Below are positions 7,069 through 36,097 of a stretch of 64,000 nt of DNA, in pieces; the first letter of the stretch is position 1; every line of letters begins with the position of its first letter. Under the pieces are notes generated by a model. The model saw only the letters and a list, made by a program, of their open reading frames with translations. It had not been told where the DNA came from and did no database searches. Both the position numbers and the translations under genes were made by a program. Source of the DNA: Alphaproteobacteria bacterium (GTDB lineage: Bacteria > Pseudomonadota > Alphaproteobacteria > RF32 > CAG-239); NCBI GenBank assembly GCA_028706255.1, contig JAQWBS010000003.1:1-64000 (forward strand), in the 5' to 3' direction.

Positions 7069-7284
7069 ATGACCCCCTTTACACTTTCACAAGATGACCG
7101 TTGCCTTAAAACTTCGGAAGCCGCCGAGTATCTTGGCCTATCTCAAAAAACACTTCAAATGTATCGCTACGATGGAATCGGGCCGGCGTTTGTTCGGTTC
7201 GGAAAAACCGTGCGTTATCGTCTATCTGACATAAAGGCATGGCGCGACAGCCGTCTTTGCAATCCCGGCAAAAAAGAAAATTAG
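7069..7284 (+). CDS. AlpA/excisionase-like helix-turn-helix protein
   Basis: A 71-residue MerR-type winged-helix DNA-binding protein of the HTH_17/AlpA group. It shows the signature LKTSEAAEYLGLSQKTLQMYR, then GPAFVRFGKTVRYRLSDIKAWRDSR, the wing and last helix. Such proteins direct excision or activate the integrase gene of mobile elements. ATG 7069 has a CAGGAG site; the longer reading from 7030 lacks one. It is the first gene of the prophage and lies 105 bases before the integrase start. Confidence 0.85.
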   Translation: MTPFTLSQDDRCLKTSEAAEYLGLSQKTLQMYRYDGIGPAFVRFGKTVRYRLSDIKAWRDSRLCNPGKKEN

Positions 7285-7294
7285 CGACACGCTA

Positions 7295-7337
7295 TTTTTT
7301 AGCTGGACTTTCAAAAATATGTCCGGCAGATTGCCAA
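7295..7337 (+). repeat. Leader repeat 1, before integrase
   Basis: A 43-base segment (TTTTTT, GCTGGACTTTC, TCCGGCAGATTGCCA) repeated with few changes at 8795. It contains the inverted repeat GGCA-GAT-TGCC. It lies 52 bases before the integrase start, so it may be an operator or leader element. It overlaps no clear coding frame. Confidence 0.55.
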
Positions 7338-7388
7338 TCCAATCGCTGGAAAACCCTTGGTTTTCCGCCAAAACGAAAGGAAAATAGA

Positions 7389-8765
7389 ATGCAAATAAAA
7401 TGCCTATACTTTAAGAAAAAACTGACGGCGGAATTTTTGGAGCGTATAAAATCCGATAACGATTTACAGATAAGCGACACAGAAGTTCCCGGATACCACC
7501 TGCGCTACTCAACCAAAACGGGACGCAAAGTTTTATATCTCAACTACACGCTCCGCTTGGACGCAATGCGAAAACAGCGTAATTTGAAACTGGGTATGTT
7601 CCCCGAAATATCCGCGCCCATTGCCCGCGCCGAAGCCATCAAGTTTCGCGGGCAAATACTGAACGGCATAGACCCTATGCTGGAACGCCAGCAACGCCTG
7701 CGCCAAGCGATGGGCGAGCAGGAAAAACAAATCCCCCTTAAAACCATTATGGAAAAGTATTTGGAAGAACATTCCAAACCGCTTAAAAAGGCCGGCACTT
7801 CCCGGCGCGAATTCCAGCTTGCCCGAAAGTATGTAATCCCTATGATGGGCAGTGTTCCGATAAACGAGATAAATGTTCGCCACCTTGAAAAAATGCACCT
7901 GACCGTTGGCGAACATACGCAGGTTCAAGCGAACCATTGCCTTATGTTCTTATCGTATTTTCTAAACTGGTGCGAAAAGCAGGAGTATCGCACCCTTGGC
8001 ACTAACCCCGTCCGCCTTATCCGCAAGTTCAAGACCAAAGGCCGCGACCGCGTTCTTTCGGACGAAGAATATCAACGCGTCTTTGAAGCGATGGACTTGG
8101 GGCGGCGCACCAACCTGCTGAACCCTGTTGGCTTTGATATTTTGGCTTTCATAATCTTTACAGGTTGCCGTTCCAGCGAAGCGAAAAAGCTGACTTGGGA
8201 CGAAGTCGATTTTGATAACAGTATCCTGCGCCTAAAAGACAGCAAGACTGGCGCAAAATCCATTCCTATCAGCAGTATTGCACTGGACATTATCAAAGCC
8301 GCCCTGCCCAAAAAGACCAGTTCCACTTCCCCTGTATTTCCAAACACGCACGGCAAAGCCTTTCCCGACGAGGGGCTTGCTAAGCATTGGGAGTTCATCC
8401 GCGAACACGCGAAATTGGAAAATGCTAACATTCACGACCTGCGCCACTCGTTCGCAACTACGGGAAGCATGACGGGCGAAAACATTGCCGTTATCGGCAA
8501 GGTGCTTGGGCATAGCACGATAGCCACAACCAGCCGCTATACCCATATCAACAACATCAAGGGAATTGAAGTTGCCAACAACATTGCCGAGCGCATAGCG
8601 AAAAAAGCAAAGCTGAACAAACAACCGACGGCGCAAAAACTTATGGAAATGCTGGACGGCGACGACGCGGAAACCGAGGTTGAAACGCGCGGTCGCGGGC
8701 GGAAGAAAAAAGACCCGACCGCCGCCCCTAAAAAACGCGGTCGGCCGAGCAAAAAGAAAAGTTAA
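7389..8765 (+). CDS. int: Tyrosine-type integrase (P4 integrase group)
   Basis: A 458-residue site-specific recombinase that inserts and excises the prophage. An N-terminal DUF4102-like arm-binding domain (residues about 10-100) is followed by a core-binding domain and the catalytic domain. Catalytic residues visible are FTGCRSSEAKKLTW (first Arg), IHDLRHSFATT (HxxR) and LGHSTIATTSRYTH with the Tyr nucleophile. The C-terminus is a lysine/arginine-rich tail (GRGRKKK, KKRGRPSKKKS) resembling AT-hook motifs, which is unusual. I chose ATG 7389, preceded by an AAAGGAA site; the upstream extension overlaps the HTH gene. Confidence 0.93.
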   Translation: MQIKCLYFKKKLTAEFLERIKSDNDLQISDTEVPGYHLRYSTKTGRKVLYLNYTLRLDAMRKQRNLKLGMFPEISAPIARAEAIKFRGQILNGIDPMLERQQRLRQAMGEQEKQIPLKTIMEKYLEEHSKPLKKAGTSRREFQLARKYVIPMMGSVPINEINVRHLEKMHLTVGEHTQVQANHCLMFLSYFLNWCEKQEYRTLGTNPVRLIRKFKTKGRDRVLSDEEYQRVFEAMDLGRRTNLLNPVGFDILAFIIFTGCRSSEAKKLTWDEVDFDNSILRLKDSKTGAKSIPISSIALDIIKAALPKKTSSTSPVFPNTHGKAFPDEGLAKHWEFIREHAKLENANIHDLRHSFATTGSMTGENIAVIGKVLGHSTIATTSRYTHINNIKGIEVANNIAERIAKKAKLNKQPTAQKLMEMLDGDDAETEVETRGRGRKKKDPTAAPKKRGRPSKKKS

Positions 8766-10307: not shown

Positions 10308-11624
10308 ATGAAAAGGCAGGCATTACAAGAGCTTATCAGGTGGAAAAACCGACCCGCGCACAAACCTCTTATAATTCAAGGGGCGCGGCAAGTTGGCAAG
10401 ACTTGGATTATGAAAGAGTTTGGTCGCACCGAATATGAAAACATCGCTTATATTTGGTTTGAAAAGAACGAGCGTATGGCGGCATTGTTTTCCGGTGATA
10501 TGGATACCGACCGCATATTGTTGGGACTAGAAGCCGAAGTCCAGCATAAGATAACGCCCGGCAAAACACTGATTATTTTTGATGAAATACAGGCTTGCCC
10601 GAATGCTTTGACCGCCCTTAAATACTTTAATGAAAATGCCCCGCAATATGATATAGTTGCGGCCGGAAGTTTGCTTGGCGTGTTCTTGCACGAAGGGGTT
10701 TCCTTCCCTGTTGGCAAGGTAGAGTTTATGAATCTCTATCCAATGAACTTTTGCGAATTTTTAGACGCAATGGGCGAAGAAAGGCTTTGCGAATTATTGG
10801 CAAAGCAAGATTGGGAAATGGCCAAGGTATTCAAAGACAAATACATATATTACTTGCGTCTGTATTTTTATATCGGCGGTATGCCCGAAGCTGTTTCGCA
10901 GTTTATAAAAACCAAAGATTATGAAGCGGTGCGCAAAGCGCAAAAAGATATACTTGCCGCGTATAAAGAAGATTTTTCCAACCATGTTCCTAAGGCTCAT
11001 ATTCAAAAAGTCGCACAAATTTGGGATAGCGTTCCATATCAGCTGGCAAAAGAAAACAAAAAATTCGTATATTCGGAAGTTCAAAGGGGCGCACGCGCCA
11101 ACACTTATGAAACCGCGTTGGAATGGCTTATCAAAGGCGGTCTTATTCACCGCGTTTCGCGCGTATCAAAGCCCGCGATTCCGCTCAAAGGCTATGCCAA
11201 CGCCAGCGGCGCATTCAAGTTGTTTATGGTTGATGTTGGCTTGCTGTCCGCCATGTCCAAGGTTGATGTCCGCGCCTTGCTCGAAGGCGACGCACTATTT
11301 ACAGAATTTAAGGGCGCATTGACCGAGCAGTTCGTCTGCCAAGAGCTGCAAACAATGATGGACGATATGGATATAGCATACTGGGCGAATGAAAATCCGG
11401 CCCGCGCCGAAATAGATTTTATCTTGCAACTGGGACGGCAAATTATCCCGCTAGAAGTAAAAGCGGGAGCAAACTTAAAAGCAAAGAGCCTTTCGGTGTA
11501 TCGCGAAAAGTTTAGTCCAAAGGTCGAAGTCCGAACCTCACTGGCGGATTATAAAAAGACGGATAATTTGTATGATATACCGCTGTATGCGCTAGGCTAT
11601 CTAAAAGAAATAATTGAAGAATAA
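10308..11624 (+). CDS. AAA ATPase with DUF4143 domain
   Basis: A 438-residue protein with an N-terminal AAA_14 ATPase (Walker A GARQVGKT at residues about 22-29, Walker B TLIIFDEIQAC, sensor VAAGSLLGV) and a C-terminal DUF4143 domain. The latter includes a PD-(D/E)xK-like stretch AEIDFILQL, PLEVKAG. Members are common on mobile elements and often thought to act as regulated ATPase/nuclease modules; the role is not established. It starts ATG 10308 with a GGAG site and precedes hsdR by 11 bases, so it is the first gene of the restriction operon. Confidence 0.85.
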   Translation: MKRQALQELIRWKNRPAHKPLIIQGARQVGKTWIMKEFGRTEYENIAYIWFEKNERMAALFSGDMDTDRILLGLEAEVQHKITPGKTLIIFDEIQACPNALTALKYFNENAPQYDIVAAGSLLGVFLHEGVSFPVGKVEFMNLYPMNFCEFLDAMGEERLCELLAKQDWEMAKVFKDKYIYYLRLYFYIGGMPEAVSQFIKTKDYEAVRKAQKDILAAYKEDFSNHVPKAHIQKVAQIWDSVPYQLAKENKKFVYSEVQRGARANTYETALEWLIKGGLIHRVSRVSKPAIPLKGYANASGAFKLFMVDVGLLSAMSKVDVRALLEGDALFTEFKGALTEQFVCQELQTMMDDMDIAYWANENPARAEIDFILQLGRQIIPLEVKAGANLKAKSLSVYREKFSPKVEVRTSLADYKKTDNLYDIPLYALGYLKEIIEE

Positions 11625-11635: not shown

Positions 11636-14389
11636 ATGGCATTCAACGAAGATACGAGGGTAAAAATACCGGCAATCCTGACGCTTACGCGTCTTGGATA
11701 TGGTTATTTGTCGTTGAAAGACCGCACGGATATTGACCCGCAAACAAACATTTTCAAGGATATTTTCTTTGATTCTTTGCGCAAACTTAATCCAAACACC
11801 GCTGATGAAGAATTACAAAAGTTCTTTCTTAAAATCCAAACTATGCTTGATTATGAAGATTTGGGAAAGGCATTTTATGAGCTTTTAACAAGCGGCGCTG
11901 GTATAAAATTGATTGACTGGGAAAAACCACTTCGCAATACTTTGAATGTTTGCACAGAACTGACTTGCGGGAACAAGGACGAAGATAGTTTCCGCCCTGA
12001 TATAACGTTGCTTATCAATGGAATGCCGCTAGCGTTTATAGAAGTTAAGAAACCTAATAATCGCGAAGGTATTATTGCGGAACGCACTCGTATCAATGAC
12101 CGCTTCAAAAATCGCAAATTCCGTCGTTTTATTAACATTTCCCAAATTCTGTTATTTTCAAACAATATGGAATATGAACAGGACGATACAGACCCAATAC
12201 AAGGCGCGTTCTATGCCGCAAGCAGCAAGGGCAAGGCATTTTTCAATCAATTCAAAGAAGAAAAAGACAATAAAGCCCGCCTATTCGGTATGTTGAAGGA
12301 TGAGAATGACCACATAGAGAACGAAGTCTTGAAAGACAATAACTATGCTACAATGAAGTATAGCAAGGAATTTGAAACCAACAAACGCCCCGACAGCCCT
12401 ACTAACCGCGCCATTGTTTCTCTATTTGCGCCGGAGCGGATTTTTGAATTGCTCCGCTATGGATTTGCCTATGTTGAATATGACGACGAAGATGGTTTGC
12501 ACCATTTGGAAAAGCATATCATGCGCTATCCGCAATTTTTTGCCAGTAAAGCAATCCAATCAACGCTGGATAGTGGTAAAAAGCGTGGAATTATATGGCA
12601 TACGCAGGGTTCCGGCAAAACAGCGTTGGCATATTTTAGCGTGCGCTGGTTGACGGATTATTTTGCAAAAAAGAATACTATTCCACAATTTTATTTCATT
12701 GTGGACAGGATAGATTTGCGCACGCAGGCAGGAAACGAATTCAACATTCGCGGATTAAAAGTCAATAGTATTGAAAGCAAAGAAGATTTTATCAAGCATT
12801 TGAAGCGCAAGGCTACGCGTTCCGGCAATTCCGGCGAACAAGAAATAACTGTTTTGAATATCCATAAATTCTCGGAAGACGCGCGGGCGACAACCCAAAA
12901 AGATTATGATATAAACACGCAACGGGTGTATTTTATTGACGAAGCCCATCGCAGTTATAGTCCGGCAGGAAGCTTCCTTGCCAACCTTATACAATCCGAC
13001 CCTAATGCTATCATTATATCCCTAACAGGAACGCCGCTTTTGGATAAAGGCGAAAAACGGATTGCCAGCACGGAAATCTTTGGGAAATACATTCATAAAT
13101 ACTATTACGACCAGTCCATATCGGACGGTTATACTTTACGCCTGATACGCGAAGAGATAGAAAGTAAATACAAGTTAAAACTGAAAGAAATCTTTGAGAA
13201 AATCCAAGTTCCCAAAGGCGATACCCGTATCAAGCAAATTTACGCGCACCAGAATTTCTGCGCTCCTCTTTTGGAATATATCGCGGAAGATTTGCGCAAA
13301 AGCCGTATCCAGCATAATAACGACACTATCGGCGGAATGGTTGTTTGCCATAGCTCGGAACAAGCGGAAATGTTGTTTGGATTATTCAAAAAAGAATATG
13401 AAGGCAAGGCGACCGACGCGCATATACCAAATACCGCCGCACTGATTTTGCATAATGCAGATGATAAAGCCACGCGCAAAAACTATATCAAGAGCTTTAA
13501 GAATGGCAAGATTGACCTATTATTCGTGTTTAATATGCTTTTGACGGGTTTTGACGCGCCACGTTTGAAAAAACTATATCTCGGCCGCGTCATCAAGGAA
13601 CATAATCTGTTGCAAACGCTGACCCGCGTCAATCGTCCTTACCAAGGCTTTCGTTATGGCTACGTTGTAGATTTTGCCGATATTAAGAAAGAGTTTGATA
13701 AGACAAATCGGGCATATTGGAAAGAATTGCAGACCGATTGGGGTGAAGATATGGACGGCTATAAAAACCTGTTCAAATCCGCCGAAGAAATTGAGCAAGA
13801 TATTAAAGAAATCAAGGATAAATTATGGCTTTTTGACACATTGAACGCCGAAGTTTTCCAACAACAAATCAGCGAAATCAAAGAAAAGAAAGACCTGTTG
13901 AATCTGCGTAAAGCATTACAGCTGGCGACGGAACTTTATAACATTATCCGATTAAACGGCTATGAAGAATTATTAGGCAAGTTGGATTTCAACCAATTCA
14001 AGCGTTTGCTGAATGAAGTAGAAAACCGCATTGGGATTATCAATCAACGTGAAGCCTTGCAAAATGGGGAAGATATTACAGGGCTTTTGAATGAAGCGTT
14101 GGAAGATTCAATCTTTGTTTTCAAAAAAACGGGCGAAAGCGCGCTGGATTTAGCAGCGAATGGCTTAAAAGATTTACTGCGTAAAACGCGCGAAGCGATG
14201 GGGCATAATGTGGACAAGAAAGACCCATCGTGGGTATCTTTGAAGGAAGAACTGGAACGACTACTGCGCGATAAAAATTGGGAAGAAGCCGAAGGAGCTG
14301 ATATAGAAGAAGGCACAAAAATTTTGACAGGCATATATGGACGCATTGCGGAATTGAATCGCAAAGACGCTCAATTATTGGTCAAATAA
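11636..14389 (+). CDS. hsdR: Type I restriction enzyme R subunit
   Basis: A 917-residue motor-nuclease subunit that translocates and cuts DNA in the HsdR2M2S1 complex. It has an N-terminal nuclease with RPDITLL then FIEVKK (residues about 120-136), Walker A HTQGSGKT (about 320-327), DEAH box FIDEAHRS (about 435), TGTPLLD and a late helicase motif LTRVNRPYQGF. Length is somewhat short for the family. It is followed directly by hsdS with no hsdM between or anywhere in the window, which is unusual because HsdM is needed both for assembly and to protect host DNA. Confidence 0.95.
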   Translation: MAFNEDTRVKIPAILTLTRLGYGYLSLKDRTDIDPQTNIFKDIFFDSLRKLNPNTADEELQKFFLKIQTMLDYEDLGKAFYELLTSGAGIKLIDWEKPLRNTLNVCTELTCGNKDEDSFRPDITLLINGMPLAFIEVKKPNNREGIIAERTRINDRFKNRKFRRFINISQILLFSNNMEYEQDDTDPIQGAFYAASSKGKAFFNQFKEEKDNKARLFGMLKDENDHIENEVLKDNNYATMKYSKEFETNKRPDSPTNRAIVSLFAPERIFELLRYGFAYVEYDDEDGLHHLEKHIMRYPQFFASKAIQSTLDSGKKRGIIWHTQGSGKTALAYFSVRWLTDYFAKKNTIPQFYFIVDRIDLRTQAGNEFNIRGLKVNSIESKEDFIKHLKRKATRSGNSGEQEITVLNIHKFSEDARATTQKDYDINTQRVYFIDEAHRSYSPAGSFLANLIQSDPNAIIISLTGTPLLDKGEKRIASTEIFGKYIHKYYYDQSISDGYTLRLIREEIESKYKLKLKEIFEKIQVPKGDTRIKQIYAHQNFCAPLLEYIAEDLRKSRIQHNNDTIGGMVVCHSSEQAEMLFGLFKKEYEGKATDAHIPNTAALILHNADDKATRKNYIKSFKNGKIDLLFVFNMLLTGFDAPRLKKLYLGRVIKEHNLLQTLTRVNRPYQGFRYGYVVDFADIKKEFDKTNRAYWKELQTDWGEDMDGYKNLFKSAEEIEQDIKEIKDKLWLFDTLNAEVFQQQISEIKEKKDLLNLRKALQLATELYNIIRLNGYEELLGKLDFNQFKRLLNEVENRIGIINQREALQNGEDITGLLNEALEDSIFVFKKTGESALDLAANGLKDLLRKTREAMGHNVDKKDPSWVSLKEELERLLRDKNWEEAEGADIEEGTKILTGIYGRIAELNRKDAQLLVK

Positions 14390-15044
14390 GGAATATAAAT
14401 TATCAGAGCTTGGTATATTTGCTCGTGGAAAATCCAAACATCGGCCGCGAGATGATATACGGCTTTTTGAGAATGGTAAGTATCCACTTGTGCAGACGGG
14501 CGAAATAAAAGATGCCTTGCTTTATGTAAATTATCATACTTTGGAATATGGAGACTTTGGATTAAGACAAAGCAAACTGTGGGATAGAGGAACACTCTGT
14601 ATAACCATCGCAGCAAATATAGCAGAAACAGCTATTCTTGACTATCCCATGTGCTTTCCTGATAGTGTTGTTGGTTTTACTGCTGATAAAACAAAAAGTT
14701 CAGAGTTATTTTTGCATTACATTTTCATTTATATTCGCAAGTCGATTCAAAATTCGGCAAGTGGAAGCATTCAAGATAATATAAATCTTGAATATCTAAC
14801 GAACTTAAAATTCAAAATTCCACCAAAGAACTATCAAGATAAAATTGCCATCATATTATCAATGCTTGATGGCAAAATAGAGTTGAATAATAAAATAAAT
14901 TCTGAACTGGAAGCGATGGCACGGGCGTTGTATGATTATTGGTTTGTGCAATTTGATTTTCCTGACGAAACTGGACGACCGCTTACTTCCCGCATTTTTT
15001 CGTGGATAAGAAACGACAGAAAAATGGGGGTGCAGTATGCCTAA
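14388..15044 (+). CDS. hsdS: Type I specificity subunit fragment 1, start codon missing
   Basis: HsdS reads the target sequence. The frame encodes KEYKLSELGIFARGKSKHRP, a typical start of the first target-recognition domain, then one such domain and the conserved helix ELNNKINSELEAMARALYDYW, ending after RPLTSRIF. The frame is open from 14358, yet no ATG, GTG or TTG occurs before GTG 14490, which is inside the domain. The family N-terminus begins right at the hsdR stop codon, so a deletion probably removed hsdM and the hsdS start. A +1 frameshift from hsdR is a less likely route to expression. The 3' end overlaps the next hsdS by 8 bases. Confidence 0.75.
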   Translation, partial: KEYKLSELGIFARGKSKHRPRDDIRLFENGKYPLVQTGEIKDALLYVNYHTLEYGDFGLRQSKLWDRGTLCITIAANIAETAILDYPMCFPDSVVGFTADKTKSSELFLHYIFIYIRKSIQNSASGSIQDNINLEYLTNLKFKIPPKNYQDKIAIILSMLDGKIELNNKINSELEAMARALYDYWFVQFDFPDETGRPLTSRIFSWIRNDRKMGVQYA

Positions 15045-16302
15045 CCCTCAAAAAACCACTTACAAGATAAAAGATTTAGCTGTATCTAATAAACAGAATT
15101 TTAATTTTCGCGGAATTGATCATATCAATTATGTTGATACAAGCTCAATTATAGAAAATACAATAAACTGCACTCAAAGATTAAACTGTAATTCGGATAT
15201 AATTCCTAGTAGAGCAAAAAAAGCAGTTGGGAAGAATACAATAATCTACTCTGCTGTTCGCCCAAATCTCAAACATTATGGCCTTATAAAAAAGCCGTTG
15301 AAAAATATGGTTGTTTCAACGGGATTTATCACTCTTGATTTGATGAAAGAAATTGATCCAGCCTATTTTTACTACAATTTAACTCAGCAAAAATATACGG
15401 ATTTTCTACACACCGTTGCCATAAATAATGCTTCAGCTTATCCTGCTATAAATCCAAGCGATCTAGAAAATCTTGAAATTGATATTTTTGATAGCCTACA
15501 AACCCAAAAAGACATTGGGAACTTCCTTTCCGCGCTAGACGATAAGATAGAACTAAATAATAAAATAAATTCCGAATTTGAGGCGATGGCGCGGGCGTTG
15601 TATGATTATTGGTTTGTTCAGTTTGATTTTCCCGACGGAAAAGGACGACCGTATAAATCCGCCGGTGGTGCGATGGTTTATTCCGACATTCTAAAACGCG
15701 ATATTCCAGCGGGGTGGGAAGTGAAAACGTTGGCGGAAAATAACCTTGCTAAAATACTGAAGCCGGGGATTACAAAGTTTGATGGCGAAAAGACTTATCT
15801 TGCCACCGCTTGCATTGAAAATGACAGAATAACCGACTGCTCAAACAAAATAACTTTTGACAACCGCGAGGGACGGGCAAATATGCAGCCAATCGCCAAC
15901 TCTGTTTGGTTTGCTAAAATGAAAAACACAAAAAAAGTTTTGTATTTCGGTGATTATTCAAGTGAACGAATAGCAGGATTGATAATTTCAACTGGAATGC
16001 TTGGTTTGCAATGCCAAAACTATGCACTAGAATATATTTGGAATCTCATCAACAACGATGTTTTTGAAGTACTAAAAAACAAGTTATCCCACGGAGCAAC
16101 GCAGGAAGGCGTTAATAACGATGATTTGGCGTTTATACCTGTTGTTGTGCCGTCGCAAGAAATTTTAGAACAATACTCCGCACTGGTAAAGCCGATTTAC
16201 CAACAGAAATATTTAAACGAGCGGGAAGCAGAACATCTTGCCACACTTCGTGATTTTTTGTTGCCAATGTTGATGAACGGACAAGTCTGTGTTGCGAATT
16301 AA
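15037..16302 (+). CDS. hsdS: Type I specificity subunit, full length (expressed copy)
   Basis: A 421-residue HsdS with two target-recognition domains (residues about 1-165 and 205-390) separated by the conserved helix ELNNKINSEFEAMARALYDYW and closed by LRDFLLPMLMNGQV. A 105-base stretch (15547-15651) is a direct repeat of 14877-14981 in fragment 1, with about 14 differences. At 15645-15660 the 16 bases ACGACCGTATAAATCC recur inverted at 16902-16917, so the second domain can be exchanged with the convergent silent copy. Confidence 0.9.
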   Translation: MPNPQKTTYKIKDLAVSNKQNFNFRGIDHINYVDTSSIIENTINCTQRLNCNSDIIPSRAKKAVGKNTIIYSAVRPNLKHYGLIKKPLKNMVVSTGFITLDLMKEIDPAYFYYNLTQQKYTDFLHTVAINNASAYPAINPSDLENLEIDIFDSLQTQKDIGNFLSALDDKIELNNKINSEFEAMARALYDYWFVQFDFPDGKGRPYKSAGGAMVYSDILKRDIPAGWEVKTLAENNLAKILKPGITKFDGEKTYLATACIENDRITDCSNKITFDNREGRANMQPIANSVWFAKMKNTKKVLYFGDYSSERIAGLIISTGMLGLQCQNYALEYIWNLINNDVFEVLKNKLSHGATQEGVNNDDLAFIPVVVPSQEILEQYSALVKPIYQQKYLNEREAEHLATLRDFLLPMLMNGQVCVAN

Positions 16303-16917
16303 CCAGCTGAAACCTGCCCATTCATAAGCATAGGAAGCAAGAAATCCCGTAGTTTTGCAAGCTGTGCATTTTCTTGTATGTTTTTTGCGATTATGTCTCT
16401 AAATGCTAGAATATGATTGAAATTTCCAATAACCTCTTGAGAATATGCAACATGATAATCAAGTAATTCATCTGCGCTAACAACAGGCATCTTTGTTCCC
16501 TTGGAACTTGTTATTGCGTGGTCAAATATACTTTCACTAGTTAGTGTTAAAGCAATAAAATTCCAATCTGTATAACAAAGCGGAGAAAATGAATGTATTG
16601 TGCCAGCAACCAAGCCATCAAATGGCGCAAATCCAGACTTTTTCAGATATGGACGAATTGAGCCAAACAGCAAGCTAAATTTTTGCATTTCAAACATATT
16701 TGTTTCAAATGCGTTCCCATCATTACTTCGATTTAGGCACATTGTGCCGCCTGGCATAACTGAAAGGTCAATCAGCCTTTTATTTCTGTTTGGTTCTGTT
16801 TTTTTCTTGTTTGATTTAACCAACGCCCTAAGTTTTTTCACATCCCATCTTTCAGGAATTTCGCGGCCGAGGGTTTTGTTGAAAATCATTTTGCCGCCGC
16901 TGGATTTATACGGTCGT
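15645..16917. repeat. Exact 16-bp inverted repeats bounding an invertible hsdS segment
   Basis: ACGACCGTATAAATCC at 15645-15660 and its reverse complement at 16902-16917 are identical. Inverting the 1.27-kb segment between them would join the first half of the full-length hsdS in frame to the second recognition domain now lying silent on the minus strand. The invertase gene begins 55 bases outside the right repeat. Confidence 0.8.
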
Positions 16918-16961
16918 TTATTTTCGTCGTATATTGCCCTTTGAAATAAAACAAAAAACAA
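16299..16961 (-). CDS. hsdS: Silent hsdS cassette (second-half recognition domain)
   Basis: A 220-residue frame carrying only the second half of an HsdS: linker NKRPYKSSGGKM, a recognition domain unlike those in the other copies, and the C-terminal LRDFLLPMLMNGQV. Homology starts at the inverted repeat near 16917; the first residues (FFVLFQRAIYD) are just open sequence without a ribosome site. It is convergent with the full-length hsdS, the stops overlapping by four bases. It is best read as a storage cassette expressed only after inversion. Confidence 0.85.
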   Translation of the reverse strand: MFFVLFQRAIYDENKRPYKSSGGKMIFNKTLGREIPERWDVKKLRALVKSNKKKTEPNRNKRLIDLSVMPGGTMCLNRSNDGNAFETNMFEMQKFSLLFGSIRPYLKKSGFAPFDGLVAGTIHSFSPLCYTDWNFIALTLTSESIFDHAITSSKGTKMPVVSADELLDYHVAYSQEVIGNFNHILAFRDIIAKNIQENAQLAKLRDFLLPMLMNGQVSAG

Positions 16962-16971: not shown

Positions 16972-17598
16972 ATGATTTATGGCTATATACGGGTCAGCAC
17001 TTCAACGCAGACTATTGAAAACCAACGTTTTGAAATAGAACAGTTCGTCGCTGGTCACGGGATTGTGATAGATGAATGGATTGAAGAAACTATCAGTTCA
17101 AGGCAAGAGTTGAAAAAACGAAAATTAGGAAAATTGATTAAAAAGATTAAAAAAGATGATATGTTGATTGCAAGCGAGCTTTCGCGAATAGGACGTGATT
17201 TATTACAGATTATGGGGATTCTTAATCATTGTATGGGCATTGGTGCAAATATTTGGACAATCAAGGATAATTATCGTCTTGACGCCGGTATACAGGGAAA
17301 AATTCTCGCATTTGCATTTGGATTAACAGCAGAGCTTGAACGAAACCTTATATCACAACGCACAAAAGAAGCGCTGGCAGCACGGCGAGCAGCTGGTCAA
17401 ATTCTTGGGCGGCCATTCGGTAGTAAAAGCTCATATCTTAAATTGACAGGAAAGGAAAAAATTGTGCAAAAAATGTTATCACGCGGAGAAAGCAAAACGG
17501 CAATTGCCAAAAAATTGCACGTTAATCGCGAAACATTAACATCATTTATAACCAGAAAAAATATCAAGGTTGCGTGTGTTGATTCCAGCATCATATAG
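16972..17598 (+). CDS. Serine recombinase, DNA invertase (Mpi/Hin group)
   Basis: A 208-residue resolvase/invertase. The nucleophile is Ser9 in YGYIRVSTSTQT. The ELSRIGRDLLQIM segment, LAFAFGLTAELERNLISQRTKEAL, the ILGRPFGSKS linker and a C-terminal HTH (KTAIAKKLHVNRETLTSFI) follow in the usual order. It resembles the Mpi-type master invertases best known from Bacteroidetes, which hints at cross-phylum transfer. It starts 10 bases from the silent hsdS cassette, divergently, and most likely inverts the adjacent hsdS segment. Confidence 0.92.
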   Translation: MIYGYIRVSTSTQTIENQRFEIEQFVAGHGIVIDEWIEETISSRQELKKRKLGKLIKKIKKDDMLIASELSRIGRDLLQIMGILNHCMGIGANIWTIKDNYRLDAGIQGKILAFAFGLTAELERNLISQRTKEALAARRAAGQILGRPFGSKSSYLKLTGKEKIVQKMLSRGESKTAIAKKLHVNRETLTSFITRKNIKVACVDSSII

Positions 17599-23018: not shown

Positions 23019-23524
23019 TGGGAATCAGCATAAGGGAGTATGCCAAACGCACAGGCCGACATCATTCCAGCGTTCAAAAGGCTATTGCAACCGGACGGAT
23101 ACACCTTTTAGCCGATGGCACGATTGACCCCGAACAAGCAGATAAAGAGTGGGCAGAGAATACAAGAACAACGCCGTCGCAAGCCGAGGAATACCGCAAA
23201 GCGCAAACAATGAAAGTGCGCGCCGAAGCCGGTTCTGCCCAACTTGACCTTAAAATCAAGATGGGACAAGTCGTTGAAACCAAAGTCGTTGTTTCGGATT
23301 TGTACGCACTGACCAGTGACTTGTTTTCGCATTTCGCGGCGCTGGGGCGTTCGCTTATGCCGCGCCTAATCGGGGAAACAGATTTAACCAAAGGAATCCG
23401 CATTATTGATGAGGAAGTGCTTGGATTGATTAAAGAGTATCAAGATGGGGTCGAGAACAGAATACTTAAACGCGCAGCTGCTCACCTTGACGCACAAGAT
23501 AGCGACGAGAGTGATTTTACCTAA
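23018..23524 (+). CDS. Terminase small subunit (Nu1-like)
   Basis: A 168-residue DNA-recognition subunit of the packaging motor. The N-terminal HTH (ISIREYAKRTGRHHSSVQKAIATGRI) fits lambda Nu1 and relatives. The middle is a charged helix (EEYRKAQTMKVRAEAGSAQLDLKIKMGQ) and the C-terminus should contact TerL. It starts in a TAATG overlap with the SpeD-like gene and overlaps the TerL start. Confidence 0.82.
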   Translation: MGISIREYAKRTGRHHSSVQKAIATGRIHLLADGTIDPEQADKEWAENTRTTPSQAEEYRKAQTMKVRAEAGSAQLDLKIKMGQVVETKVVVSDLYALTSDLFSHFAALGRSLMPRLIGETDLTKGIRIIDEEVLGLIKEYQDGVENRILKRAAAHLDAQDSDESDFT

Positions 23525-24233
23525 CTGCCGCCGGATTGTAAGCCCAACGTTTATGGTGTCTGAATGGGCGGACAGATGTCGTATCTTGCCGCAGGAAACG
23601 TCCAGCGAAACCGGCCGTTGGAAAACCAGTCGCACGCCGTATCTAAAAGAGATAATGGACTGCCTGTCAACCAACCACAGCCAAAAACGTGTTGTGTTTA
23701 TGAAAGGCGCGCAAATCGGCGGCACGGAAGCCGGCCTTAACTGGATTGGATACATAATCCACTATGCTCCCGGCCCAACACTTTGCGTTAATCCGACCTT
23801 GGATATAGCAAAGCGCACCAGCAAACAGCGCATAACACCCATGATAGAAAGCACGCCAATTTTGCGTGAGCGTATTACCGCCCCAAAAACAAAGGATAGT
23901 GGCAATACAATTTTGCAAAAGGATTTCAAAGGCGGTAGTTTGATATTCGCAGGTGCTAACGCGCCGGCAGGATTGCGCTCTGTTCCGGTTCGGTATTTGT
24001 TTTTAGACGAAGTGGATGGTTATCCCGACGAAGCCGGCATTGAAGGCGACCCTGTTGACTTGGCCATGCAACGTACAAGCACCTTTATCAATCGCAAGGT
24101 ATTTATGATTTCAACGCCGACCATTAAAGATGCAAGCCGTATCGAGCAAGCGTTTTGGAAGGCGACCAGCGTTATTACCATGTTCCTTGCCCAAAGTGCG
24201 GGCATTATCAAGTCCTGCGTTGGCGCAATGTGA
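23511..24233 (+). CDS. Terminase large subunit, N-terminal part (frameshifted)
   Basis: First part of a lambda GpA-like packaging ATPase. It has VSEWADRCRIL, the deviant Walker A KGAQIGGTE, Walker B LFLDEVDGYP and the coupling motif STPTIKDASRIEQAF. After EQAF the reading frame becomes nonsense and stops at 24233, while the family sequence continues one base back at 24155. The start is GTG 23511 or ATG 23553. A single missing T in the TTTT run at 24153-24156 would explain the break. Confidence 0.88.
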   Translation: MILPNCRRIVSPTFMVSEWADRCRILPQETSSETGRWKTSRTPYLKEIMDCLSTNHSQKRVVFMKGAQIGGTEAGLNWIGYIIHYAPGPTLCVNPTLDIAKRTSKQRITPMIESTPILRERITAPKTKDSGNTILQKDFKGGSLIFAGANAPAGLRSVPVRYLFLDEVDGYPDEAGIEGDPVDLAMQRTSTFINRKVFMISTPTIKDASRIEQAFWKATSVITMFLAQSAGIIKSCVGAM

Positions 24234-25363
24234 TATTTGACAGCAAGAACCTAACAGAAGCCTGCTACAAATGTGAAAGTTGCGGCGACCTTTGGCACGA
24301 TTGGCAAAAGGACGATATTTTGCGTCGCGGGCATTGGATAGCGAAAAAGCCTTATAATACAAAGGTTGCAAGTTTTCATTTGTCATCGCTTTACAGTCCG
24401 CATGGCTGGGTGTCTTGGACAGATATTGCTCGCGAGTTTTTAGAAGTCAAAGATGACCCGTCGCGCTTGCAAGTTTGGACGAACACTAAACTGGCAGAAA
24501 CATGGGAAGATATGGCGGGCGAGCAAATTGACCCGACAAATCTTATGTTGCGTCGCGAACGCTTTGGCGACTATTTGCCCGAAGGTGTGGCAATATTAAC
24601 TGCCGGCGTCGACGTGCAGGATAATCGTTTGGAAGTTGAAGTTGTTGGTTGGGGGCGCGCGGAAGAATCTTGGAGCATTGATTACTTGGTGCTTTACGGC
24701 GATCCGTCTACACCCGAACTTTGGGCAGAATTGGACGCGGTGCTTATGCGCCGTTATACGCATAGCAAAGATATTGCCGACCTTGGCATATTGGCGTGTT
24801 GTGTAGACAGCGGCGGCCACTATACCGACCATGTTATCAATTATTGTTTTGCTCGCGCGCATTATCGCGTCTTTGCTATCAAAGGCGATGGTGGCCACGG
24901 CAAGCCGATATGGCCGGCAACCGCCAGTAAAAACTGGAAAAGCAAAAAACCGGTTTATGTTCTTGGGGTAAACGACGCAAAAGATACGCTTATGCGCCGT
25001 TTGCATAATACCGAAGGCGCTGGGTGTTGGCATTTTCCGATGGAACGCGATCACGAATGGTTTGACCAACTGACCAACGAAGTCGTCCGCAAGAAGTTTT
25101 ATCAAGGCCGGCTTATCCGTGAATGGCGGCCGCGCAAGGAAGGCGCACGAACAGAAGCGCTGGATTGTCGTGTGTATGCGTATGCAGCCTTGCGTGCGCT
25201 GGTTCGTAATTATCGGTTCAATCTTGATTATACCGCAGAACAAATAGCAACGGCAAACGTTCGAACAACGCCGAAACCAGCCGTGAGACAAGTTCAGGCG
25301 GAACAGCGACCAACAACAGCGCCGCACTCACGGCGCGTGAGAAGCAAAGGAATTGACTTGTGA
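24155..25363 (+). CDS. Terminase large subunit, C-terminal part (frameshifted)
   Basis: Continuation of the GpA-like terminase: LEGDQRYYHVPCPKCGHYQ with a zinc knuckle (CPKC, later CESC), then the nuclease domain with TAGVDVQDNRLEVEV, CVDSGGHYTDH and the C-terminal RTEALDCRVYAYAA. The TTG at 24155 is only the point where the frame resumes; no ribosome site precedes it. If the frameshift is real, packaging is lost and the prophage is defective. If it is an assembly error, one gene of about 618 codons spans 23511-25363. Confidence 0.88.
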   Translation: MEGDQRYYHVPCPKCGHYQVLRWRNVIFDSKNLTEACYKCESCGDLWHDWQKDDILRRGHWIAKKPYNTKVASFHLSSLYSPHGWVSWTDIAREFLEVKDDPSRLQVWTNTKLAETWEDMAGEQIDPTNLMLRRERFGDYLPEGVAILTAGVDVQDNRLEVEVVGWGRAEESWSIDYLVLYGDPSTPELWAELDAVLMRRYTHSKDIADLGILACCVDSGGHYTDHVINYCFARAHYRVFAIKGDGGHGKPIWPATASKNWKSKKPVYVLGVNDAKDTLMRRLHNTEGAGCWHFPMERDHEWFDQLTNEVVRKKFYQGRLIREWRPRKEGARTEALDCRVYAYAALRALVRNYRFNLDYTAEQIATANVRTTPKPAVRQVQAEQRPTTAPHSRRVRSKGIDL

Positions 25364-25563
25364 AAACTTATGAACAGCAACTAGAAGAAGTCCAGAAAGC
25401 TATTACTGAAATTCTGACCGGCGCGCAGGAAGCCTCATACAACGGCCAGCGTGTCCGCAAAGCCGATTTGGATATGCTTCAAAAACGCGAAGAATGGCTG
25501 ACAAAGCAGATTGCAACAAAACGACGTGGCGGTATCCGCGTCCGTATTGCAACTCCATTGTAA
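25360..25563 (+). CDS. Head-tail joining protein, gpW-like
   Basis: A 67-residue protein of the gpW family, which plugs the portal and prepares the head for tail joining. The pattern is YEQQLEEVQKAITEILTGAQ, then GQRVRKADLDMLQKREEWL with a basic end, matching gpW in size and layout. The start is GTG 25360 overlapping the TerL stop. In phages of this kind gpW precedes the portal gene; here a Fic gene intervenes. Confidence 0.8.
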   Translation: MKTYEQQLEEVQKAITEILTGAQEASYNGQRVRKADLDMLQKREEWLTKQIATKRRGGIRVRIATPL

Positions 25564-25596
25564 AATATTTATTTTTTTGCTGGACTTATTTGGGGT

Positions 25597-25626
25597 TATC
25601 TAGTAATATCTGGTATTATCTAGTAA
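25597..25626 (+). promoter_or_regulatory. Three 10-bp tandem repeats before the Fic gene
   Basis: TATCTAGTAA, TATCTGGTAT and TATCTAGTAA follow each other with no gap, one per DNA helical turn, ending 15 bases before the start of the Fic gene. Such phasing suits a cooperative repressor, possibly the Fic protein itself, which has a C-terminal winged-helix-like region. A third copy of the prophage leader core GCTGGACTT lies just upstream (25579-25587). Confidence 0.5.
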
Positions 25627-25641
25627 AGAAAGGTAAAAACT

Positions 25642-26700
25642 ATGCCAGATATTAAAAACATAAAGATAACCCCTCAAATGCTTACGGCTATTGCAGAAAT
25701 AGACGGTTTTAAGGGAGCGTGGACTGGCTTTGCACGTTTGCGCCCTGAACAATTAAACCGCCTTAAAAAAGTTTCTACGATTGAATCCATCGGATCAAGT
25801 AATCGTATTGAGGGGAATAAGCTATCTGACGCTGAAGTTGAAAAACTACTTACGCGTATAAATAGAAAATCTTTCAAATCAAGAGATGAGGAAGAAGTTG
25901 CTGGCTATGCCGAGTTAATGAATACCATCTTTGACGATTATGAAGCCATACCGCTAAGCGAAAACTATATTAAGCAATTACACTCTATTTTGTTGCAATA
26001 TGTCCAAAAAGATGAAGGACACCGTGGCGAATATAAAAAAGTTTCAAACTCAGTTGCGGCTTTTGACCCCAGCGGCAAAGAAGTCGGTATTGTTTTTGAA
26101 ACAGCAACGCCTTTTGACACTCCGCGCTTAATGGAAGAGTTGGTGGAATGGACACGAAAGAACCTAGATGACACCTTTTACCACCCGTTAATAGTGATTG
26201 CGGCTTTTGTCGTCAATTTCTTGGCAATACACCCTTTTCAAGATGGAAACGGTCGTTTATCCCGCGCTTTAACAACAATGCTTCTTTTGAAAAAAGGATA
26301 TTCCTATGTACCATATAGCTCGATTGAATCCGTTATTGAAGCAAGCAAAGAAGGATATTACCGAGCGTTACGCCGTACTCAAAAGAATATCTGGACGGGT
26401 GATGTTGATTATGAACCATGGGTATCATTCTTCTTAATGACTCTTGTAAAACAGAAAAAACATTTAGAAGATAAAGTCCAAACGTTAACATTTGACGAAA
26501 CCAAACTATCGCGCCTTGCAAGACAAATTTTGGAGTTATTTGATGAAAAAGCCGAATGGACAATCCCAGAAGTTGTTGAAAAGCTAAAAATCAATATAGA
26601 AACCGGCAGAAAATCAATGAAATCTCTTGTTGATGGCGGTTATGTTGTAAAAAACGGCACAACTCGCGGCGCTTGGTACGAAAAGGCAAGTAAAGATTAA
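25642..26700 (+). CDS. Fic family protein (class II, self-inhibited)
   Basis: A 352-residue Fic enzyme, expected to AMPylate a target protein. The inhibitory helix motif GSSNRIEGN is N-terminal (residues about 50-58), the class II arrangement. The active site HPFQDGNGRLSR is intact near residue 197. The C-terminus (IPEVVEKLKINIETGRKSMKSLVDGGYV) is a winged-helix DNA-binding segment. It sits alone between gpW and portal, with its own upstream repeats and terminator, so it is a moron. It is as likely to be a toxin or host-modifying gene as a self-regulated one. Confidence 0.92.
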   Translation: MPDIKNIKITPQMLTAIAEIDGFKGAWTGFARLRPEQLNRLKKVSTIESIGSSNRIEGNKLSDAEVEKLLTRINRKSFKSRDEEEVAGYAELMNTIFDDYEAIPLSENYIKQLHSILLQYVQKDEGHRGEYKKVSNSVAAFDPSGKEVGIVFETATPFDTPRLMEELVEWTRKNLDDTFYHPLIVIAAFVVNFLAIHPFQDGNGRLSRALTTMLLLKKGYSYVPYSSIESVIEASKEGYYRALRRTQKNIWTGDVDYEPWVSFFLMTLVKQKKHLEDKVQTLTFDETKLSRLARQILELFDEKAEWTIPEVVEKLKINIETGRKSMKSLVDGGYVVKNGTTRGAWYEKASKD

Positions 26701-26725
26701 ATAAACATATTTAACAGGTATTAAA

Positions 26726-26750
26726 AGGTCGCAGTTTTGCGGCCTTTTTT
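26726..26750 (+). terminator. Intrinsic terminator after the Fic gene
   Basis: Stem AGGTCGCA (26726-26733) with TGCGGCCT (26738-26745), one G-U pair, then TTTTTT. It isolates the Fic gene from the structural operon. Confidence 0.8.
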
Positions 26751-26765
26751 GCTATGAGGAAAACA

Positions 26766-28304
26766 ATGAAACTGCCAAAACAAACATTATTGGATAAGGC
26801 AATATCGTGGGTATCGCCGGCCGCCGGATTGGAGCGCTGGAAAGCACGCACACACCTTGCCATGCTGGGCGGCTATACCGGCGCACGCCGCGATAGACAC
26901 CAAACAAAAACTTGGAATACGGCCGGTGGTTCTGCCGACGCGGTATCGCTGGACGATTTACCAACCCTTCGCGACCGAAGCCGTGATTTGCTCCGCAATG
27001 CCCCACTAGCAACCGGAGCAGTCAACACAGTTATCACAAATGTTGTTGGAACAGGTTTACGCCCGCAAAGCCATATTGACCGCGCCGTATTGCGCCCATA
27101 TCTAAAAACAGACGACGCTATGGAAGAATGGGAAGCTGAAGCCGAGCGGATATTTATGCTTTGGGCAAACAGTCTTGACTGCGATATAACGCGCGGCCAA
27201 ACCTTTACAGATTTACAGGCTTTATTGCTCCGGTCTTGTTTGGAAAGTGGCGATGTCTTTGTTTTGCGTAAATACAAAGAGCGCGCGGGTAATCCTTTCG
27301 GAACCGCTTTGCAGGTTGTGGAAGCAGATAGAATTGCTTCGCCAACCGGAAACACCGCAAAAATCATTGCCGGCGTTGAAATAGACACCGATGGCGCGCC
27401 AACAGCATATCATATTTTGAACCGCCACCCCGACGATCATAGCACAGCAAAATTAGAAACAGCAAAAATCCCCGCATTTGATAAGGACGGGCGAAGGCAG
27501 GTTTTACATATCTTCACTCGAACACGCCCAGGACTAACACGTGGCATACCATATCTTGCGCCAGTTATTGAGAGCTTAAAACAACTTGACAGATACACAG
27601 AAGCAGAAATCGCGGCGGCAGTTATATCAAGTATGTTCACAATATTCGTCAAAAGCGAAAGCGAAGAAGGACTTGCGCCCATGTCCGGTGAGCCGCAAAA
27701 AGTTGCCGGCAACAAAGATTACCAACTTTCTCCGGGTGCGATTTTGGATTTGCAACCGAATGAAGCCATAGAAATTGCCAACCCAAACCGCCCAAACCAA
27801 GCGTTTGACGGCTTTGTGCAGTCTATTTTGCGGCAAATCGGCGTTGCGCTGGAAATACCGTTTGAAATCTTAATAAAGCATTTCACGGCTAGTTATTCAG
27901 CGGCGCAAGCGGCACTGGTTGAAGCATGGAAAACATTTAGCACTCGCCGCAAATGGATTGCGGTACAGTTTTGCCAGCCGGTTTATGAAATGGTTATCAC
28001 GGAAGCGATTGCCAAGGGCTTTTTAGACGCGCCTGGCTTCTTTGCCGACCCATTTGTTCGTGCCGCCTATTTGGGGGCGGAATGGATTGGGCCGCCACGC
28101 GGACAGATTGACCAGTTAAAGGAAATCCGTGCCGCCGACTACCGTGTGCGACTTGGTGTTTCAACACTGGAAGAAGAAACCGCACAAATAACCGGCGGAA
28201 GCTGGGAAACCAAGCACACCCAGCGGGCGCGCGAACACAAAATGCGCACAGAAGCCGGCTTGGTTGAAAAGATAGATAATGAAAAGGAAATCAACGATGA
28301 ATGA
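26766..28304 (+). CDS. Phage portal protein (lambda B family)
   Basis: A 512-residue portal, which forms the dodecameric ring at the head vertex through which DNA passes. Family signatures are LRDRSRDLLRNAPLATGAVNTVITNVVGTGL, LESGDVFVLRKY, VEADRI and the RQIGVALEIPFEILIKHF, YSAAQAALVEAW region. I chose ATG 26766, six bases after GAGGA, over ATG 26754. It overlaps the protease start by eight bases. Confidence 0.93.
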   Translation: MKLPKQTLLDKAISWVSPAAGLERWKARTHLAMLGGYTGARRDRHQTKTWNTAGGSADAVSLDDLPTLRDRSRDLLRNAPLATGAVNTVITNVVGTGLRPQSHIDRAVLRPYLKTDDAMEEWEAEAERIFMLWANSLDCDITRGQTFTDLQALLLRSCLESGDVFVLRKYKERAGNPFGTALQVVEADRIASPTGNTAKIIAGVEIDTDGAPTAYHILNRHPDDHSTAKLETAKIPAFDKDGRRQVLHIFTRTRPGLTRGIPYLAPVIESLKQLDRYTEAEIAAAVISSMFTIFVKSESEEGLAPMSGEPQKVAGNKDYQLSPGAILDLQPNEAIEIANPNRPNQAFDGFVQSILRQIGVALEIPFEILIKHFTASYSAAQAALVEAWKTFSTRRKWIAVQFCQPVYEMVITEAIAKGFLDAPGFFADPFVRAAYLGAEWIGPPRGQIDQLKEIRAADYRVRLGVSTLEEETAQITGGSWETKHTQRAREHKMRTEAGLVEKIDNEKEINDE

Positions 28305-29559: not shown

Positions 29560-29562
29560 ACC

Positions 29563-30033
29563 ATGACGCAATTAAATACCGATACAAACCGCGTTTTTGA
29601 AACGCCGGCAGACAGCAACGCAATTCCTGTCGCGGCCACTGCCAAAATTTATCAAGGCTCGTTGGTTGGAAAAACCGCCTCCGGATATGGCCGCGCATTA
29701 AATGCCGGCGACGTTGCTGTTGGTTTTGCCAAAGACAATACCGATAACACGAACGGTATTGACGGCGAGAAAGTTTGCGAACTGAAAGCCAAAGGCAAAG
29801 TTTCGTTGTTTATCAGCGGAATCACGCTGGGCGATATTGGCCGCAAGGTTTACGCCAGTGATGACAACACTTTTACGCTGACCGCTTCCGGCAATTCCGC
29901 TGTTGGCAAGCTCATCCGCTTTGAAAAAGCCGATTATGGCATTGTCGCATTTGACTTTTTAAGCACGGACGAGGAAACAACCGAAGTTGCTCCAGCCACT
30001 ACACCAACAACCGAAGAACCCGAAGGAGAATAA
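29563..30033 (+). CDS. Head decoration / capsid cement protein (DUF2190-like)
   Basis: A 156-residue small capsid protein: ADSNAIPVAATAKIYQGSLVGKTASGYGRALNAGDVAVGFAKD, then KGKVSLFISG, with a beta-rich build. This fits the capsid cement/decoration family that stabilises the expanded head. The acidic Thr/Glu-rich tail (about 20 residues) is unusual and likely disordered. It lies between scaffold and major capsid genes, as expected. Confidence 0.78.
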   Translation: MTQLNTDTNRVFETPADSNAIPVAATAKIYQGSLVGKTASGYGRALNAGDVAVGFAKDNTDNTNGIDGEKVCELKAKGKVSLFISGITLGDIGRKVYASDDNTFTLTASGNSAVGKLIRFEKADYGIVAFDFLSTDEETTEVAPATTPTTEEPEGE

Positions 30034-30036
30034 AAT

Positions 30037-30996: not shown

Positions 30997-31322
30997 TGTT
31001 CGATTTTGATAAATTCGTAAATGAACCGGCGATGGGCATATTCGGACGGGAAACAAAATACCGCCCGAAGAAGTCCGGCTTTGAGCCTTTTGCCATTCAA
31101 GGGGATTTTCACGAAAGTTATATGGACATCAATCTTGTAAATGCCGGCGCGGACATCAGCGCGGCCAAGATTGTTCTGTTCGTGCGGCTTTGTGATTTTC
31201 TCTTGAATTATCCCGAACCCAAGCAAGGGGATTATATCGTTATCAGCGATTTAGAATATCAAATTATTGATATAGAAGCGCATATTCCCGGAAGCAAAAA
31301 ACTGATTTTACACGAAGAATGA
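30996..31322 (+). CDS. Head-tail connector protein
   Basis: A 108-residue protein directly after the capsid gene: FGRETKYRPKKSGFEPFAIQGDFHESYMDINLVNAG and ISDLEYQIIDIEAHIPGSKKL. Position, size and beta-rich pattern fit the adaptor/stopper proteins that bridge portal and tail. I chose ATG 30996, overlapping the capsid stop, over an in-frame upstream reading. The exact family is not certain. Confidence 0.65.
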   Translation: MFDFDKFVNEPAMGIFGRETKYRPKKSGFEPFAIQGDFHESYMDINLVNAGADISAAKIVLFVRLCDFLLNYPEPKQGDYIVISDLEYQIIDIEAHIPGSKKLILHEE

Positions 31323-32240: not shown

Positions 32241-32243
32241 AGG

Positions 32244-32272
32244 TTGAACATTTGATAAAAAGTTCCTATTAT
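32244..32272 (+). promoter_or_regulatory. Promoter of the inserted gene at 32306
   Basis: TTGAAC (32244-32249), a 17-base spacer and TATTAT (32267-32272) give a sigma-70-type promoter just after the gpV stop and 33 bases before the next start. Confidence 0.5.
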
Positions 32273-32305
32273 AATTTATGATAAAAATATAATGAAAGAA
32301 GCAAA

Positions 32306-36096: not shown

Positions 36097-36097
36097 T

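What the first reader, a model, noticed from the sequence alone, without database searches (positions are those of the whole stretch)
15645..16917. Invertible hsdS switch with its own Mpi-like invertase inside a prophage
An exact 16-bp inverted repeat bounds the second half of the full-length hsdS and the convergent silent half. Inversion would swap recognition domains in frame. A serine invertase starts 55 bases outside. A 105-base direct repeat between the first two hsdS genes gives a second recombination route. So the phage-borne system should phase-vary its target. The invertase resembles those of Bacteroidetes, suggesting transfer across phyla.
Basis: partly seen in the sequence, partly recalled or inferred. 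Interest (0 to 1): 0.62.

Follow-up and report, generated by a model that had tools for sequence, protein, structure and literature searches.

The report
Invertible hsdS switch missing its methyltransferase
A prophage in a gut alphaproteobacterium carries a DNA segment built to flip and swap half of a DNA-recognition protein, next to its own flipping enzyme, but in this assembled copy the methylating enzyme that the switch should steer has been deleted.

Summary
In detail: an exact 16-bp inverted repeat (15645-15660 / 16902-16917) brackets the 3' half of hsdS and a convergent silent half. Inversion keeps the frame (421 aa to 408 aa) and the invertase starts 55 bases outside. The repeat is weak statistics alone (5% of shuffles), but relatives make the inverton convincing. 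In another genus (G022) the orthologous hsdR-hsdM-hsdS contig and the invertase contig both end on the last base of the same repeat, as expected if both orientations were sequenced. Similar core sites bracket hsdS halves of a different HsdS family, in another reading frame, beside related invertases. The site fits the published Mpi consensus except its central dinucleotide. Two inferences fail. There is no phase-varying R-M system in the assembled genome: hsdM is gone, hsdR has lost about 96 C-terminal residues, and hsdS1 has no start codon. Recent cross-phylum transfer of the invertase is not supported. Best reading: a serine-invertase (Mpi-type) version of the known hsdS inverton, structurally intact but uncoupled from methylation here. 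Inversion in this genome itself is unobserved.

The parts
11636..14389 (+). hsdR, C-terminally truncated (917 aa; ortholog in G022 is 1013 aa)
   Evidence: HSDR_N, SWI2_SNF2, T1R_D3-like; 77% identical ortholog with 96 further residues followed by hsdM; homology stops just before the stop codon
14378..14396 (.). inferred deletion junction: hsdR tail, hsdM and (by comparison with G022) a 244-aa gene and the hsdS1 start are missing
   Evidence: gene order hsdR-hsdM-X-hsdS in L052 and hsdR-hsdM-hsdS in L136; no hsdM match in the window
14394..15044 (+). hsdS1: half HsdS without start codon, ending just past a degenerate site copy (14975-14990)
   Evidence: Methylase_S 9.5e-20; Specificity_I 1.3e-58; no start in frame upstream of 14490; site comparison
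15037..16302 (+). hsdS2: full-length hsdS, 421 aa, now in reading position
   Evidence: Methylase_S on first half; Specificity_I 20-420, 1.6e-76
15645..15660 (+). left arm of the inverton, ACGACCGTATAAATCC
16299..16919 (-). silent convergent hsdS 3' half (second TRD); ORF runs open to 16961
   Evidence: Specificity_I 1e-27 to the C-terminal half of PDLC03068; becomes in frame with hsdS2 on inversion
16902..16917 (-). right arm of the inverton; with its outer flank identical over 27 bases to both arm copies of G022
16972..17598 (+). Mpi-family serine DNA invertase, 208 aa
   Evidence: NF009949 285.2 bits over cut-off 272; Resolvase domain; phrog_125 DNA invertase
10308..11624 (+). AAA_14 / DUF4143 ATPase beside hsdR (PADLOC candidate PDC-S01); neighbour, role unknown
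7239..8765 (+). prophage tyrosine integrase (context)
23445..45223 (+). phage structural genes: terminase, portal, protease, tail fibre, sheath, tape measure, tail (context)

Best explanation
The locus is an hsdS inverton. A Mpi-family serine invertase recombines two inverted copies of a short site with core AACG-AC-CGTATAAATC (left arm GGACG-AC-CGTATAAATC), flipping about 1.27 kb so that the second target recognition domain of HsdS is swapped in frame between two alternatives. In intact relatives this would switch the target of a type I HsdR-HsdM-HsdS enzyme. In the window's prophage the switch parts (both TRD halves, sites, invertase) are intact, but a deletion fused truncated hsdR to the start of hsdS1 and removed hsdM. 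As assembled the switch therefore has no methyltransferase to steer: a decaying or uncoupled copy. Shown: anatomy, in-frame swap, Mpi-family membership, loss of hsdM and of the HsdR tail, site conservation, contig breaks in a relative. Inferred: that the invertase acts on these sites, that inversion happens here, and that the lesion is a real deletion rather than an assembly error.
For: In-frame swap and full-length HsdS in both states. Mpi equivalog over cut-off. In 152 genomes of the family the 16-mer occurs only as the window pair and at the two contig ends of G022 (2 of 152 genomes). There the hsdR-hsdM-hsdS contig and the contig with the 63% identical invertase end on the same base of a 28-bp repeat. 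That assembly shows 55-base contig overlaps and keeps several 29-52 bp repeats unbroken, so a 28-bp repeat alone should not break it. Core sites recur beside related invertases in a different HsdS family, read in another frame (NGRINS and NEPLNP against KRPYKS): L082, L119, L186, L120. Published Mpi repeats ARACGTTCGTN (PMC8375218, passages) match AAACGACCGTA except the central two bases. In the sister system the same TRD1 is active in L119 and silent in L082 (78% identity; the two active TRD1s share 50%). Missing hsdM.
Against: No read data; the window genome assembles in one orientation. The IR alone is near chance. In L119, L186 and L082 the arms are 64-342 nt long, so shared sites inside them are not independent proof. 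The degenerate site word as a single hit is not enriched in family genomes: 25 matches against 45 for the reversed control by my count of the table. Three members of the window's invertase clade (L131, L147, L155) showed neither hsdS nor the site in what was read. A multi-copy hsdS arm elsewhere could also break the G022 assembly. Transcription and invertase activity are untested.
Confidence: 0.8

Rival explanations
1. A fully working phase-variable type I R-M system on a prophage; HsdM is supplied by another gene of the genome.
For: hsdS2, the silent half and the invertase are open and intact; the genome has other N6_Mtase genes.
Against: The two large N6_Mtase proteins match the ortholog HsdM of G022 only at 24% and 21% over about 300 residues and lie beside their own specificity genes. 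HsdR lacks its last 96 residues. hsdS1 has no start.
Confidence: 0.07
2. The hsdM loss is an assembly error: the real prophage carries hsdR-hsdM-hsdS like G022 and L136, and the switch works.
For: Both nearest relatives of the system keep hsdM; rearranging loci assemble badly.
Against: The junction shows no long repeat that would misjoin an assembly; any shared bases are short (inference). The contig runs through it and the genome is rated 99.6% complete with no stray hsdM of this family in 16 contigs.
Confidence: 0.1
3. No switch at all: the repeat is a by-product of two homologous hsdS copies that share the RPYKS motif, one of them an inverted duplicate.
For: The arms encode the same peptide; a chance 16-bp IR occurs in 5% of shuffles.
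Against: Two hsdS genes with the same motif but no invertase in the stretch read differ at 6-7 of 15 core bases (L200, L201), while window, G022 and L136 are identical (only two controls). G022 contigs break exactly at the arm. Similar cores occur in another frame in other hsdS genes beside related invertases.
Confidence: 0.05
4. A prophage-borne specificity cassette: having shed its own methyltransferase, the invertible HsdS borrows HsdM from hosts that carry a matching type I system and retargets it.
For: S genes, sites and invertase stay open after hsdM loss; hosts with matching hsdM exist in the family (G022).
Against: No matching HsdM in the present host; a recent deletion explains intact neighbours as well.
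Confidence: 0.08

Closest known systems
Inverting type I R-M loci (SpnIII / cod locus of Streptococcus pneumoniae with PsrA; loci surveyed in REBASE)
   Same: Convergent hsdS copies with inverted repeats between TRDs, recombinase in the locus, inversion changes HsdS (PMC7394358 passages; PMC7096588 and PMC4948785 listings)
   Different: Pneumococcal recombinase is tyrosine type (PMC7096588 title and abstract start); here a serine Mpi-family invertase with a short site, and hsdM is missing
hsdS shufflon of Bacteroides fragilis NCTC 9343 and 638R
   Same: TRD shuffling by site-specific inversion in a gut bacterium
   Different: Adjacent recombinases are tyrosine integrases, with another 38-bp repeat (PMC3090145 passages)
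Mpi master invertase of Bacteroides fragilis and its promoter invertons
   Same: Invertase family (NF009949) and the site frame ARACG-NN-CGTN
   Different: Mpi flips at least thirteen regions across the genome (PMC5903667 passage); here the exact site is found only at this locus of the genome and lies inside a coding gene; central dinucleotide AC instead of TT
G022 hsdR-hsdM-X-hsdS locus and L136 (Gastranaerophilales-labelled bin)
   Same: Same HsdR/HsdM kind, same site core, invertase nearby
   Different: hsdM present; no prophage genes seen in the stretches read; in G022 the inverton itself is unassembled
L082/L181, L119, L186 (related gut MAGs, mostly alphaproteobacterial)
   Same: hsdR-hsdM-hsdS-silent hsdS-Mpi-like invertase
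   Different: Another HsdS family, longer arms; L082 has two site pairs with central bases GT and AG

Membership tests
Phase-variable (inverting) type I R-M locus | two alternative TRDs joined in frame by inversion between inverted repeats | tested here: met
   both forms match full-length Specificity_I
Phase-variable (inverting) type I R-M locus | methyltransferase HsdM encoded with the hsdS genes | tested here: not met
   no N6_Mtase on contig C1; present in relatives
Phase-variable (inverting) type I R-M locus | both orientations occur in a population | tested here: inconclusive
   no reads; indirect support from contig ends of G022 and TRD exchange between L119 and L082
Type I restriction enzyme HsdR | N-terminal nuclease region, SF2 motor and full C-terminus | tested here: not met
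   HSDR_N, SWI2_SNF2 and T1R_D3-like present, last 96 residues missing against the ortholog
Mpi-family serine DNA invertase | curated family cut-off | tested here: met
   NF009949, 285.2 bits, cut-off 272
Mpi-family serine DNA invertase | catalytic serine and arginines (naming recalled) | tested here: met
   R7, S9, R72, R75 invariant in alignment A1 of 6 proteins
Mpi-family serine DNA invertase | recombination site of the Mpi kind (ARACGTTCGTN) | tested here: inconclusive
   AAACGACCGTA in the right arm matches except the two central bases; left arm GGACGACCGTA
Mpi as genome-wide master invertase | many target regions in one genome | tested here: not met
   exact 16-mer only at this locus in the genome; other site versions not excluded
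Tyrosine-recombinase hsdS shufflon | tyrosine recombinase next to hsdS | tested here: not met
   neighbour is a Resolvase-domain protein; the only tyrosine recombinase identified near is the prophage integrase at 7239-8765
Prophage | integrase plus packaging, head and tail genes | tested here: met
   ends and induction not tested

The most novel reading that the evidence does not exclude
A branch of Mpi-type serine invertases in gut Alphaproteobacteria has become a portable editor of DNA-recognition proteins. Its site (about AACG-NN-CNTNTAAATYC) has been written into unrelated hsdS families in different reading frames (and a similar core into a type IIG methyltransferase), with the central two bases as an address so that different recognition domains switch independently (GT and AG pairs in L082). 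The window shows such a cassette riding a prophage without its own methyltransferase.
Probability: 0.35. Interest if true: 0.65.

Novelty: new variant of a known kind. Interest (0 to 1): 0.48.

Why it matters
In the hsdS invertons whose recombinase type I saw named in print, it was a tyrosine recombinase. Here a serine invertase of the Mpi family does the job in several loci, mostly from gut Alphaproteobacteria, with a short candidate site that can be tested directly and that explains assembly breaks near such genes. The window copy also warns that an intact-looking switch need not be a working epigenetic switch: the methyltransferase gene is gone.

Tried and rejected
Cross-phylum transfer: tree of 107 invertases does not support a recent move from Bacteroidota; the 9-row clade around the window has only moderate support (89), so deep history is open. 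L136 is labelled Gastranaerophilales but may be mis-binned.

IMG/VR scan for the 16-mer: 9 matches, none in an hsdS context, so chance. IMG/VR scan with hsdR found no relative, with the silent half none; with the first hsdS half 5 loci, none with this invertase in the stretches held. Phage records: no record covers most of the locus; the best DNA match is 305 bases of the invertase of Bacteroides phage B124-14 at 69%. Attachment sites: no convincing repeat; the best, 27 bp, looks like a dispersed repeat. Context of 29 loci (28 with an invertase hit or fragment, plus L100 without one) searched with window hsdS queries: the only hsdS beside an invertase at E below 1e-3 was in L082; the wider search gave L016, L082/L181, L119, L136, L186, of which L016 is a separate hsdS about 4 kb away with no inverted half seen. 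The degenerate site as a single word is not enriched against the reversed control. ACGNNCGT within 250 bp upstream of invertases: 4 found, 2.1 expected, over 72 loci whose start was recognised, so the octamer alone is no general marker. Literature: searches showed no hsdS inverton run by a Mpi-type serine invertase; only CC-licensed PMC papers are held, so absence there is weak.

Full report
OBSERVATION. The window holds hsdR (11636-14389), a half hsdS (14394-15044), a full hsdS (15037-16302), a convergent half hsdS (16299-16919, minus) and a serine invertase (16972-17598). The exact repeat ACGACCGTATAAATCC lies at 15645-15660 and inverted at 16902-16917; inverting the segment yields an open 408-aa HsdS in place of the 421-aa one. 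Both forms match a full-length specificity-subunit model. By itself the repeat is weak: 5% of 500 shuffles of the 3.2 kb contain a 16-bp inverted repeat. The claimed 105-base direct repeat is 87% identical at best, 76% over 156 nt.

CONTEXT. The locus lies between a tyrosine integrase and phage packaging, head and tail genes, so a prophage is supported; its ends were not found. The terminase gene is split over two frames, so the prophage may be defective, or the assembly has an indel.

THE METHYLTRANSFERASE IS MISSING. A whole-genome search for N6_Mtase finds three places, none on this contig. Two lie next to their own specificity genes and the third looks like an unrelated methyltransferase. 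The genome has one HSDR_N gene, this one. In 152 family genomes only G022, of another genus, has a close HsdR (77%). There hsdR is 1013 aa and is followed by hsdM (539 aa, N6_Mtase 4.7e-64), a 244-aa Hypoth_Ymh gene and hsdS. The hsdR of L136 also ends with such a tail and is followed by hsdM. In the window hsdR stops at residue 917, right where homology to G022 ends, and the next bases already read as hsdS1, which has no ATG, GTG or TTG in frame before 14490. The simplest reading is a deletion that removed the HsdR tail, hsdM and the hsdS1 start. The loss of the HsdR C-terminus probably also harms assembly with HsdM (recalled general knowledge, not tested).

IS THE INVERTON REAL? (a) Of 152 family genomes, the 16-mer occurs in two: as the window pair, and in G022 at the very ends of two contigs, the hsdR-hsdM-hsdS contig and the contig with a 63% identical invertase. 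Both contigs end on the same base, the inner edge of a 28-bp repeat, where the two arms of the window also diverge. That assembly shows 55-base overlaps between contig ends and keeps several repeats of 29-52 bp intact in the 347,652 bases examined; a 28-bp repeat should not break it unless reads support two continuations. This is indirect evidence for both orientations in that sample. L122 is the same contig under its public name: same length, first 400 bases identical. (b) Of the 80 kept genome loci with a Mpi-like invertase (best 80 of 486 confirmed), 14 have a contig end within 300 bp upstream of the gene and 1 downstream, a pattern expected if the DNA upstream rearranges. (c) hsdS with a convergent copy next to a related invertase occurs in L082 (the same locus as L181), L119, L186 and L136; the L120 contig starts inside an hsdS.

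THE SITE. In L082, L119, L186 and L120 the HsdS family and the reading frame differ (peptides NGRINS or NEPLNP instead of KRPYKS), yet the DNA core is similar: AACGGTCGTATAAATTC, AAACGAGCCTTTAAATCC, AAACGGTCGTATAAAT beside AAACGACCGTATAAATC of window, G022 and L136. This speaks for a recombinase site rather than protein conservation. Two hsdS genes with the same motif and no invertase in the stretch read differ at 6 and 7 of 15 core bases (L200, L201; only two controls, from other organisms). The Mpi repeats of B. fragilis are given as ARACGTTCGTN in PMC8375218 (passages read; the original paper is not held); the right arm matches except for the two central bases. Against over-reading: the degenerate word is not enriched as a single hit (25 matches against 45 for the reversed control in 136 genomes, my count of the table); only close inverted pairs stand out (two pairs in G013, plus the contig ends of G022).

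EXCHANGE IN RELATIVES. In L119 the active TRD1 is 78% identical to the silent TRD1 of L082, whereas the two active TRD1s share 50%. The same recognition domain is thus active in one genome and silent in another, as inversion predicts. This is the sister system, not the window's own locus.

INVERTASE. It passes the Mpi equivalog cut-off. Mpi-like genes occur in 24 of the 31 family genomes searched (own included) and 0 of 24 others. In a tree of 107 sequences (duplicates L053 and L082 dropped) the window pairs with L119 (SH-aLRT 98) within a 9-row clade, mostly alphaproteobacterial (89), that also holds L181, L120, L122 and L186; most Bacteroidota rows fall in a separate 41-row clade (99). Three of the nine (L131, L147, L155) showed neither hsdS nor the site in what was read. 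Recent transfer from Bacteroidota is therefore not supported; a Bacteroides phage with a similar invertase shows that phages can carry such genes.

COMPARISON. In the hsdS invertons whose recombinase type I saw named, it was a tyrosine recombinase: PsrA of S. pneumoniae (PMC7096588, listing), B. fragilis shufflons (PMC3090145, passages), and tyrosine-type recombinase genes enriched at a gut inverton group that overlaps specificity-subunit genes (PMC11892184, passages). The REBASE survey PMC7394358 (passages) speaks of recombinase/integrase genes and does not use the word serine. A Mpi-type serine invertase in this role is a new variant of a known kind as far as the searches reach.

VERDICT. 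The inverton is very likely real as a structure and as a working kind in relatives; in this genome, as assembled, it is uncoupled from methylation. Inversion in the window genome itself remains unobserved.

Noticed in passing
L082 (G013:C5) 3687-6335: Two nested site pairs with different central bases (GT outside, AG inside) around TRD1 and TRD2 of one hsdS locus; predicts four HsdS forms with independent switching.
   Followed up: partly
L014 5684-9938 (IMGVR_UViG_3300000304_000212): Type IIG-like Eco57I methylase with a convergent second TaqI_C specificity half, 291-nt inverted repeat and a Mpi-like invertase: an inverton of a different methylase kind; its arm contains ACGACCG, as does the start of L133.
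   Followed up: partly
L119-L198: 14 of 80 Mpi-like invertases have a contig end within 300 bp upstream, 1 of 80 downstream: assemblies seem to break at their targets.
   Followed up: partly
window 23445-25363: Terminase large subunit split into two overlapping frames; frameshift or assembly indel in the prophage.
   Followed up: no
window 21314-22708: Prophage ParB-like / N6_N4 DNA methylase fusion, a separate solo methylase.
   Followed up: no
G000:C4:271681-272265 (L016 13663-14313): A second Mpi-like invertase, 61% identical, elsewhere in the same genome; its target was not identified.
   Followed up: no
window 6320-6346 and 57927-57953: 27-bp exact direct repeat, partly palindromic, probably a dispersed repeat.
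   Followed up: no
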